Positions 11,236 to 11,889 of a stretch of 64,000 bases of DNA are shown piece after piece. The notes below the pieces were generated by a model. That model saw only the letters and a program-made list of their open reading frames with translations, made no database searches and was not told the origin of the DNA. This DNA comes from Populus alba. Lineage: Eukaryota; Streptophyta; Magnoliopsida; Malpighiales; Salicaceae. How positions within the stretch are numbered: position 1 is the first letter of the stretch; the number at the start of each line of letters is the position of its first letter. A program made the position numbers and the translations under genes. The DNA lies in the NCBI RefSeq assembly GCF_005239225.2, contig NC_133299.1:11722967-11786966 (forward strand). The letters run 5' to 3'.

Positions 11236-11889
11236 ATGGCAGGTTCCTCAAGTAATCACATAAAAAATATTTATGTTTTCGGTGGATCCAGTCTTGGGAA
11301 AGAAAAAGAGTTTTTAGAATCAGCAAATCATCTTGGTCAGGTACTAGCTGAGCGAAAGATTCATTTAGTGTATGGAGGAGGCAGCCTTGGGTTAATAGGG
11401 GGAGTGTCAATAGATGTGTCTTTAGGAGGTAGTCAAGTTTTGGGATTTGTCCCCAAAGCTTTAGCACAAGGGGACATCATTGGAAAAACAATTAGAGAGG
11501 AATTACAGGTGCCCACAATGTCTGATCGACTGAATGCAATGTTTAACCATGTTGATGCCTTCATTGCCTTACCAGGTGGTCTGGGTACATTGAAAGAGAT
11601 CTTTCATATTTCCTCCTAGGCCCAACTGCATATTCACCATAAACCCACAGGTTTGTTAAATGTTAATAGTTTTTATGATAAGTTGTTGTCTTTTCTTGAT
11701 CATGCTGTGGAACAGGAATTTCTAACATCTTCAGCACGACAAATCATAATCTCTGCTGCTACCGCTGAACAATTGATTGACCAATTACAATCTTTCGTCC
11801 CTGTAGTTAATCCCTCCATGAGTCGCATAAATTGGACAACTAAGGAAAGTCGTAAAAAACTTAGATTGGATTTGAGCCTTCGTTTGTAA
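11236..11889 (+). pseudogene. LOG: LOG-type cytokinin riboside 5'-monophosphate phosphoribohydrolase, captured inside the Gypsy element, one internal stop
   Basis: LONELY GUY enzymes release active cytokinin bases from cytokinin riboside monophosphates in the cytosol. The frame from ATG 11236 is 217 codons long, the usual size. It shows the Rossmann-type glycine loops IYVFGGSSLG (residues 12-21) and LVYGGGSLGLIGG (44-56). The SDRLNAM segment (96-102) holds the conserved Arg, and the signature PGGLGTLKE (113-121) holds the catalytic Glu. Codon 128, where the family has Trp before AQL, is TAG (11617-11619). The frame then continues undisturbed to TAA at 11887-11889 (HHKPTGLLNVNSFYDKLLSF). No introns are present, although plant LOG genes normally have several, so the copy probably came from spliced RNA. 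It lies in the element's sense orientation before the polypurine tract. Without readthrough only the N-terminal 127 residues would be made. Confidence 0.88.

What the first reader, a model, noticed from the sequence alone, without database searches (positions are those of the whole stretch)
11236..11889. A LONELY GUY cytokinin-activation gene carried inside a Gypsy retrotransposon
The frame is full length (217 codons), intron-less, in sense orientation, and inside an element whose edges are fixed by LTRs and a CTAAC duplication. The LOG signature PGGLGTLKE, both glycine loops and the conserved Arg are intact, and the only lesion is a TAG at a Trp codon. Gene capture by plant LTR elements is known in general; I know of no described Gypsy family that carries LOG. 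If autonomous relatives carry an intact copy, the element could spread or express a cytokinin-releasing enzyme. Such an enzyme could act on dividing, meristematic cells, the cell type where transposition is inherited. That last step is speculation.
Basis: partly seen in the sequence, partly recalled or inferred. Interest (0 to 1): 0.88.

Follow-up and report, generated by a model that had tools for sequence, protein, structure and literature searches.

The report
Poplar retrotransposon carrying two extra genes
A jumping element of white poplar carries a plant hormone-activating gene next to a gene that looks like one from an RNA virus; the pair also occurs in related elements of distant plants, so it seems to be lasting equipment of the element, although the copy in this window is dead.

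Summary
A LOG-like frame (11236-11889, one internal stop) lies in sense between pol and the 3' LTR of a Ty3/Gypsy element at 5239-14857. Gene models of Citrus, Orobanche, Primulina and Acer hold both (39 of 120 listed), 14 with gag/pol. Element LOGs form one clade. In nine copies with long pol, LOG pN/pS is 0.34, near integrase (0.37); 6 of 9 LOG frames are open, against 0 of 12 deleted copies, window included. So LOG looks like a lasting, selected part of an old Gypsy lineage; this copy is a dead deletion derivative. LOG in Gypsy is in print as a domain hit (PMC9289625). The virus-like partner, asterid range and selection evidence seem new in the papers I could search. Cytokinin activation is unproven; Citrus and one Orobanche group lost catalytic residues.

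The parts
5234..5238 (.). target-site duplication CTAAC, 5' side
5239..7044 (+). 5' LTR
   Evidence: 93.3% identical to the 3' LTR, begins TG and ends CA
7051..7067 (+). primer-binding site, tRNA-Asp-like
   Evidence: 14 of 17 matches to a tRNA-Asp 3' end recalled from memory
7371..7799 (+). gag piece
   Evidence: PF03732 3.4e-17
8199..9116 (+). gag C-terminal and protease-region pieces (two open pieces, 8199-8672 and 8676-9116)
   Evidence: frames; no Pfam match for 8676-9116, but it aligns at 74-92% to three Primulina models (P0284, P0286, P0325) and one Populus model (P0255) and at lower identity to others
9706..10188 (+). integrase zinc-binding part followed by integrase C-terminal part; RT, RNase H and integrase core are missing
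   Evidence: PF17921 5.3e-13; nine of 20 other copies have the longer pol
10363..10368 (+). TATA-like box 67 bp before the virus-like gene
   Evidence: 10 of the 10 copies examined, out of 20
10430..10978 (+). carlavirus NABP-like gene, broken here (start region out of frame, internal stops)
   Evidence: PF01623 1.3e-5 on the open piece; 18 of 18 aligned members match PF05515 and PF01623
11164..11169 (+). TATA-like box 72 bp before LOG
   Evidence: TATAAA upstream in 18 of 21 copies, window included
11236..11889 (+). LOG (LONELY GUY, cytokinin riboside 5'-monophosphate phosphoribohydrolase) frame, internal stop at codon 128
13036..14857 (+). 3' LTR
14858..14862 (.). target-site duplication CTAAC, 3' side
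49002..50831 (-). solo LTR of the same family, TSD AATAC

Best explanation
An old Ty3/Gypsy lineage of core eudicots (Ogre/Tat/Athila group, probably Athila, placed from recall) carries two accessory genes in sense between pol and the 3' LTR: first a zinc-finger nucleic-acid-binding protein related to that of carlaviruses, then a LOG gene taken once from a plant, intron-less. Shown: stable linkage and order, many copies, common origin of the element LOGs, and purifying selection on LOG in copies with long pol at about the level seen for integrase. Inferred: each gene is transcribed from its own TATA-type promoter. The LOG protein makes active cytokinin in cells where the element is expressed, which favours division and so transmission, while the NABP-like protein counters silencing or alters transcription. 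The window copy is a pol-deleted, decayed derivative that some other copy mobilised.
For: Same genome: 40 of 40 scored LOG matches cover the whole 654 bases at 94-100%. Of 20 flanked copies, 20 have an NABP match directly upstream (12 of them near full length), 19 have pol, 18 have an LTR match downstream. LOG frame open in 12 of 40; in 6 of 9 long-pol copies and in 0 of the 11 other flanked copies, nor in the window. pN/pS in the nine long-pol copies: LOG 0.34 (0.17-0.64), integrase core 0.37 (0.14-1.04); NABP 0.47 in eight of them. 0 of 200 neutral simulations reach 0.34 under each of four mutation models. Other plants: 39 of 120 listed gene models hold NABP and LOG, 14 (11 Citrus, 3 Primulina) also gag/pol, 13 of these in the order gag/pol-NABP-LOG. 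One LOG clade (83/93, inner part 98.7/100). Across six element LOGs that keep both catalytic residues, host-invariant sites are 79% identical against 49% elsewhere. LOG and NABP distances from the same models correlate (r 0.92, 0 of 2000 permutations, 20 chosen models plus window). TATA boxes at a near-fixed distance before both genes.
Against: Replacements among 109 LOG rows (the query and 108 database proteins) look neutral in kind (BLOSUM -0.41 against -0.38 simulated; 97 changes at motif sites against 74-97 expected), and so do those of 120 NABPs. With all 12 open LOG copies pN/pS is 0.44 (0.26-0.78) and with all 40 it is 0.49, weaker than the 0.34 of the long-pol set, and the integrase interval includes 1. 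Citrus element LOGs lost the catalytic Glu and Orobanche group 2 lost the Arg. No expression or enzyme data. The NABP model is poor (pLDDT 53), so its kinship to the viral protein rests on sequence profiles alone. pN/pS values are pooled over pairs that share branches, and the simulations assume a star phylogeny. The Orobanche models link LOG to NABP but show no gag/pol themselves.
Confidence: 0.6

Rival explanations
1. LOG is kept for another use of its nucleotide-binding fold (RNA, nucleotide or protein binding, possibly as a partner of the NABP-like protein), not for making cytokinin.
For: Catalytic residues are lost in Citrus (Glu to Ala) and in Orobanche group 2 (Arg to Asn, one cluster of 46 members) while the rest is kept across species; a low-confidence model of the latter (pLDDT 48) still finds LOG structures first (2a33, E 4.7e-8). 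The Lys next to the catalytic Arg is lost in the Populus, Citrus, Primulina and Orobanche rows.
Against: Most Populus rows (Arg in 114 and Glu in 117 of 121) and representatives of Primulina, Orobanche group 1, Acer saccharum and Xanthoceras keep both Arg and Glu; the Acer yangbiense model P0247 has lost the Arg.
Confidence: 0.25
2. LOG is a passenger: captured once, amplified with the element, not selected.
For: Neutral kind of replacements in database copies; 28 of 40 copies broken; 0.59 in deleted copies lies within the neutral range.
Against: pN/pS 0.34 in long-pol copies; survival of the frame in rosids and asterids at 50-60% identity; no open frame in the 11 deleted copies or the window, open in 6 of 9 long-pol copies; more sites without any change than simulated (16 against about 3-7 of 194).
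Confidence: 0.1
3. An ancient host LOG paralogue was captured several times by related elements, so the selection seen between families happened in host genes.
For: Some clade members have no informative flanks (P0242, P0251, P0265, and the 12-row Populus group with P0099 and P0106, two of which NCBI names LOGL10); the host status of that group could not be tested because the genome search did not complete.
Against: Each plant group in the clade has element-linked members: Populus, Citrus and Primulina (gag/pol), Orobanche (NABP), Acer (NABP or gag), Xanthoceras (protease fragment); no clearly host-borne gene of the clade was among the rows I examined; the order NABP-LOG is the same throughout; within one genome LOG in long-pol copies is also constrained.
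Confidence: 0.12
4. A processed LOG copy landed in this one element after insertion.
For: LOG is intron-less, and an 11-base A-run lies about 180 bp after its stop.
Against: 20 of 20 other copies carry it in the same place, with the same upstream spacer (78-96% identical).
Confidence: 0.01

Closest known systems
YgdH/LOG domain in Gypsy consensuses of Citrus sinensis, C. clementina and P. trichocarpa (Alvarado-Marchena 2022, PMC9289625: abstract, section 12 and passages seen; it cites Steinbauerova 2011, which was not held)
   Same: Same domain in the same superfamily and in two of the same genera; very probably the same elements.
   Different: There a short domain hit. In what I read there is no partner gene, no asterid members, no phylogeny or selection test of LOG.
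Orchid Gypsy elements with an AlkB m6A demethylase (PMC9289625, same parts seen)
   Same: Extra enzyme gene fixed in a Gypsy lineage, multi-copy.
   Different: Other enzyme, with shown activity; found in Phalaenopsis only.
Insect retrotransposons with RNA-virus helicase domains (Morozov 2019, PMC6338049: part 1 of 4 and passages seen)
   Same: A plant-virus-like gene with possible silencing-suppressor role kept by retrotransposons.
   Different: Fused helicase in insect elements; here a separate small zinc-finger gene in plant Gypsy.
Carlavirus cysteine-rich protein / NABP, such as Chrysanthemum virus B p12 (passages of PMC12172455 seen)
   Same: Pfam PF01623 and PF05515 match; basic stretch plus four-cysteine motif (motif likeness recalled).
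   Different: 182 residues, encoded in a retrotransposon, function untested. The viral p12 is described as a weak silencing suppressor and as a transcription factor that induces hyperplasia.
Athila-type envelope-like genes (recalled; Athila is named in passages of PMC7264820)
   Same: Extra sense gene between pol and 3' LTR.
   Different: No similarity to NABP or LOG known to me; not compared here.

Membership tests
Ty3/Gypsy LTR retrotransposon | two LTRs and a 5-bp target duplication | tested here: met
Ty3/Gypsy LTR retrotransposon | gag, protease, RT, RNase H, integrase in Gypsy order | tested here: met
   Not in the window copy (RT, RNase H and integrase core absent), but long pol in nine of 20 sister copies by my reading (one of the nine lacks the first part of the pol query).
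Athila lineage | RT/integrase phylogeny with reference elements | not tested
   No reference set; the tRNA-Asp-like primer site and integrase motifs fit Athila from recall only.
LOG (cytokinin riboside 5'-monophosphate phosphoribohydrolase) | LOG family by sequence profile | tested here: met
LOG (cytokinin riboside 5'-monophosphate phosphoribohydrolase) | catalytic Arg and Glu of PGGxGTxxE | tested here: met
   Both present in the window frame, ahead of the internal stop; Arg in 114 of 121 and Glu in 117 of 121 Populus-type rows; not met in Citrus and Orobanche group 2. That these residues are catalytic is recalled.
LOG (cytokinin riboside 5'-monophosphate phosphoribohydrolase) | enzyme activity | not testable with these tools
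   -
Carlavirus NABP / Viral_NABP | profile match above the curated score | tested here: met
   PF01623 25.5 bits against cut-off 20.9 and PF05515 24.0 against 23 for the window piece; 18 of 18 members match both at E up to 1, best 1.1e-8.
Carlavirus NABP / Viral_NABP | fold shared with the viral protein | tested here: inconclusive
   model of low confidence (pLDDT 53); no structure search was made with it
LTR-transduced host gene | intron-less gene inside the LTRs, found in several insertions | tested here: met

The most novel reading that the evidence does not exclude
A plant retrotransposon lineage that has lived in eudicots since before rosids and asterids split, or has spread between them, carries a virus-style host-manipulation set: a nucleic-acid-binding protein like the carlavirus silencing suppressor, and a cytokinin-activating enzyme. 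Together they open silencing and push cells towards division, which helps the element reach the germ line.
Probability: 0.35. Interest if true: 0.88.

Novelty: new variant of a known kind. Interest (0 to 1): 0.62.

Why it matters
Extra genes in plant Gypsy elements are mostly of unknown use. This one pairs an enzyme of known chemistry with a virus-like protein, is constrained about as pol is, and spans rosids and asterids. It gives a direct test of whether plant retrotransposons act on their host's hormones and silencing as viruses do. It also warns annotators: some 'LOG' and 'LOGL10' gene models in such genomes may be element copies.

Tried and rejected
Late retrocopy inside this element: rejected. 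Viral-contig scans for LOG and NABP relatives: 0, 1 distant and 0 loci, no use. AlphaFold of the NABP-like family: low confidence, not searched further. AlphaFold of the Orobanche NABP-LOG model: low confidence; its LOG half still finds LOG structures. The 12-row Populus group, two rows of which NCBI names LOGL10, was first taken as the host gene; its replacements look neutral too (n 38), so I leave its status open. Papers: ten searches. For NABP in retrotransposons, searches gave 0, 2 and 5 papers, unrelated by title. Passages also looked at: PMC3136472 (no NABP), PMC11963269, PMC13317346 (42, no cytokinin, Populus or Athila), PMC7264820, PMC6317226. Steinbauerova 2011 was not held, so I cannot say what it reports beyond the citation. 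Searching the own genome for P0106, P0123 and P0290 (LOGL10 group, NABP, host LOG) did not complete.

Full report
What is in the window. A Gypsy element occupies 5239-14857. Its LTRs (5239-7044, 13036-14857) are 93.3% identical over 1840 columns (K2P 0.046), and CTAAC flanks it. At substitution rates recalled from memory (1.3e-8 to 2.5e-9 per site and year) this is roughly 2 to 9 million years. When the flanks are joined, a Copia frame is open across the junction, so the element sits in an older Copia. Internal pieces: gag (PF03732), a protease region, and an integrase zinc-finger piece followed by the integrase C-terminus (PF17921). RT, RNase H and the integrase core are gone. A primer site like tRNA-Asp is at 7051 (14 of 17, tRNA recalled).

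LOG. The frame 11236-11889 translates to 217 residues with one internal stop at codon 128. Pfam, PDB and motif evidence all say LOG. The nearest database proteins are 91% identical and 217 residues long; 1625 proteins match and 120 were listed.

The missed neighbour. The open piece 10480-10932 matches PF01623 (carlavirus nucleic-acid-binding protein, 25.5 bits, cut-off 20.9) and PF05515 (24.0 bits, cut-off 23). A search with 10534-10932 finds 660 proteins, 120 listed, many of 182 residues; those with a species name are Populus and one Acer. All 18 members of an alignment match both Pfam families. In the window the gene (10430-10978) is broken: its start region is out of frame and it has internal stops. 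The viral protein is described as a silencing suppressor and, in Chrysanthemum virus B, as a transcription factor that induces hyperplasia (passages of PMC12172455).

Same genome. The window lies in a 416-Mb genome. Three of its contig lengths equal those listed for Populus alba proteins, so I take it as P. alba. LOG DNA gave 1194 first-look candidates; 40 were scored, all matched over the whole 654 bases at 94-100% (the 100% is the window itself). I fetched the best 20 of the other 39 with flanks and the remaining 19 with short flanks. In the 20 flanked copies an NABP match lies upstream in 20 (near full length in 12), pol in 19, a gag match in 15, an LTR match downstream in 18. By my reading, nine have long pol (one of them lacks the first part of the pol query) and eleven are shortened in various ways, as the window is. 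LOG is open in 12 of 40; in 6 of 9 long-pol copies; in 0 of the 11 others, nor in the window. The other six open ones are among the 19 whose pol I did not see. I name counts only and single out no copy.

Selection. Pooled pN/pS for LOG is 0.34 (0.17-0.64) in the nine long-pol copies, against integrase core 0.37 (0.14-1.04) in the same nine, RT/RNase H 0.42 (0.21-1.04, eight copies) and NABP 0.47 (0.30-0.79, eight copies). The six open long-pol copies alone give 0.26. All 12 open copies give 0.44 (0.26-0.78), all 40 give 0.49 (0.35-0.72), the 28 broken ones 0.53, and the deleted copies with the window 0.59 (0.39-0.88). Neutral simulations with stops excluded reach 0.34 in 0 of 200 runs under each of four mutation models; 0.59 is reached in 2, 14, 2 and 3 of 60. 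So LOG has probably been constrained in the lineage that makes copies, and decays once a copy is dead or deleted. Against this, the kind of amino-acid changes among 109 LOG rows and 120 NABP database proteins is what neutral mutation gives, although more LOG sites than simulated show no change (16 against about 3-7 of 194); the 12-row group with P0106 looked neutral too, with only 38 changes. Most of those rows must be dead copies.

Other plants. A query of both proteins, padded so that a protein of 182 or 217 residues is too short to be a candidate, found 182 gene models (only the 7989 candidates sharing most words were scored; 120 listed). Of the 120, 98 have a LOG match, 61 an NABP match, 39 both, the 39 from Orobanche (3 species), Citrus (2), Primulina (3) and Acer. 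NABP stands before LOG in all 39; in P0244 a further LOG piece precedes it. 22 models join LOG to gag/pol of this element type, and 14 (11 Citrus, 3 Primulina) have all three. 13 of the 14 run gag/pol-NABP-LOG; in P0254 gag follows, probably a model that runs into a neighbour. The Orobanche models with LOG show NABP but no gag/pol; one Orobanche model without LOG (P0293) joins NABP to gag and protease. The window's own protease piece aligns at 74-77% to the three Primulina models. Orobanche and Primulina are Lamiales, asterids; Populus, Citrus and Acer are rosids (recalled).

Origin. I chose 61 of the 120 models by hand for a LOG tree, dropped 4 by length or coverage, added 11 Populus and 2 Arabidopsis rows (70), and lost 2 more in trimming (68). 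All element LOGs form one clade (SH-aLRT 83.1, bootstrap 93; without Acer and Xanthoceras 98.7/100), apart from LOGs of Arabidopsis, mosses, monocots and an ordinary Acer LOG. Acer models P0302 and P0308 carry gag of this element, and Xanthoceras P0249 and P0250 a protease fragment. The clade does not follow host phylogeny (Citrus apart from Acer), so old element lineages or horizontal transfer are both possible. Distances of LOG and NABP from the same models correlate (Mantel r 0.92, 20 chosen models plus the window); the NABP tree has weak deep nodes. Across six representatives chosen because they keep both catalytic residues (Citrus and Orobanche group 2 left out), 65 host-invariant sites are 79% identical against 49% elsewhere, and 15 motif sites 90% against 57% (0 of 1000 random sets each).

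Function. Representatives of Populus, Primulina, Orobanche group 1, Acer saccharum and Xanthoceras keep the catalytic Arg and Glu. Citrus has lost the Glu and Orobanche group 2 the Arg, the latter in a cluster of 46 members whose low-confidence model still matches LOG structures first. So enzyme use is likely in some families and not in others. TATAAA lies about 72 bp before LOG in 18 of 21 copies, and a TATA-like box 67 bp before the NABP-like gene in the 10 copies examined; these copies are related, so this is a hint only. Separate promoters would solve the translation of downstream genes.

What is known. PMC9289625 (abstract, section 12, passages) reports a YgdH/LOG domain in Gypsy consensuses of two Citrus species and, with a filter off, of P. 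trichocarpa, in line with Steinbauerova 2011. The LOG part is therefore in print. In what I read of that text, in passages of PMC7264820 and PMC11963269, and in the searches, I saw no carlavirus-like gene in a plant retrotransposon. PMC6338049 (first part and passages) is the closest precedent that I saw for an RNA-virus gene in a retrotransposon, in insects.

Verdict. The finding is real, and better than its author thought in one way (a stable, apparently selected two-gene set) and less new in another (LOG in Gypsy was noted before). The window copy itself is dead.

Noticed in passing
5563-5719, 13361-13517 (-), 50351-50505 (+): Rfam family MIR2912 (RF04032) matches the LTRs of this Gypsy family three times, each time antisense to the LTR; the annotated microRNA family is probably an LTR fragment.
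   Followed up: no
P0253, P0256, P0257, P0260-P0263, P0266, P0280-P0282 (Orobanche): A multi-copy Orobanche group carries NABP plus a LOG that lost the catalytic Arg but is kept in three species.
   Followed up: partly
P0099, P0106 and ten related rows: Populus proteins, two of them named LOGL10 by NCBI, are sister to the element LOGs and may be element copies annotated as genes.
   Followed up: partly
17185-22591: Copia element with its own LTRs (17185-17627 and 22152-22591, 94% identical).
   Followed up: no
30754-31440 (-): Frame with a mitochondrial carrier match (PF00153, 9.3e-7).
   Followed up: no
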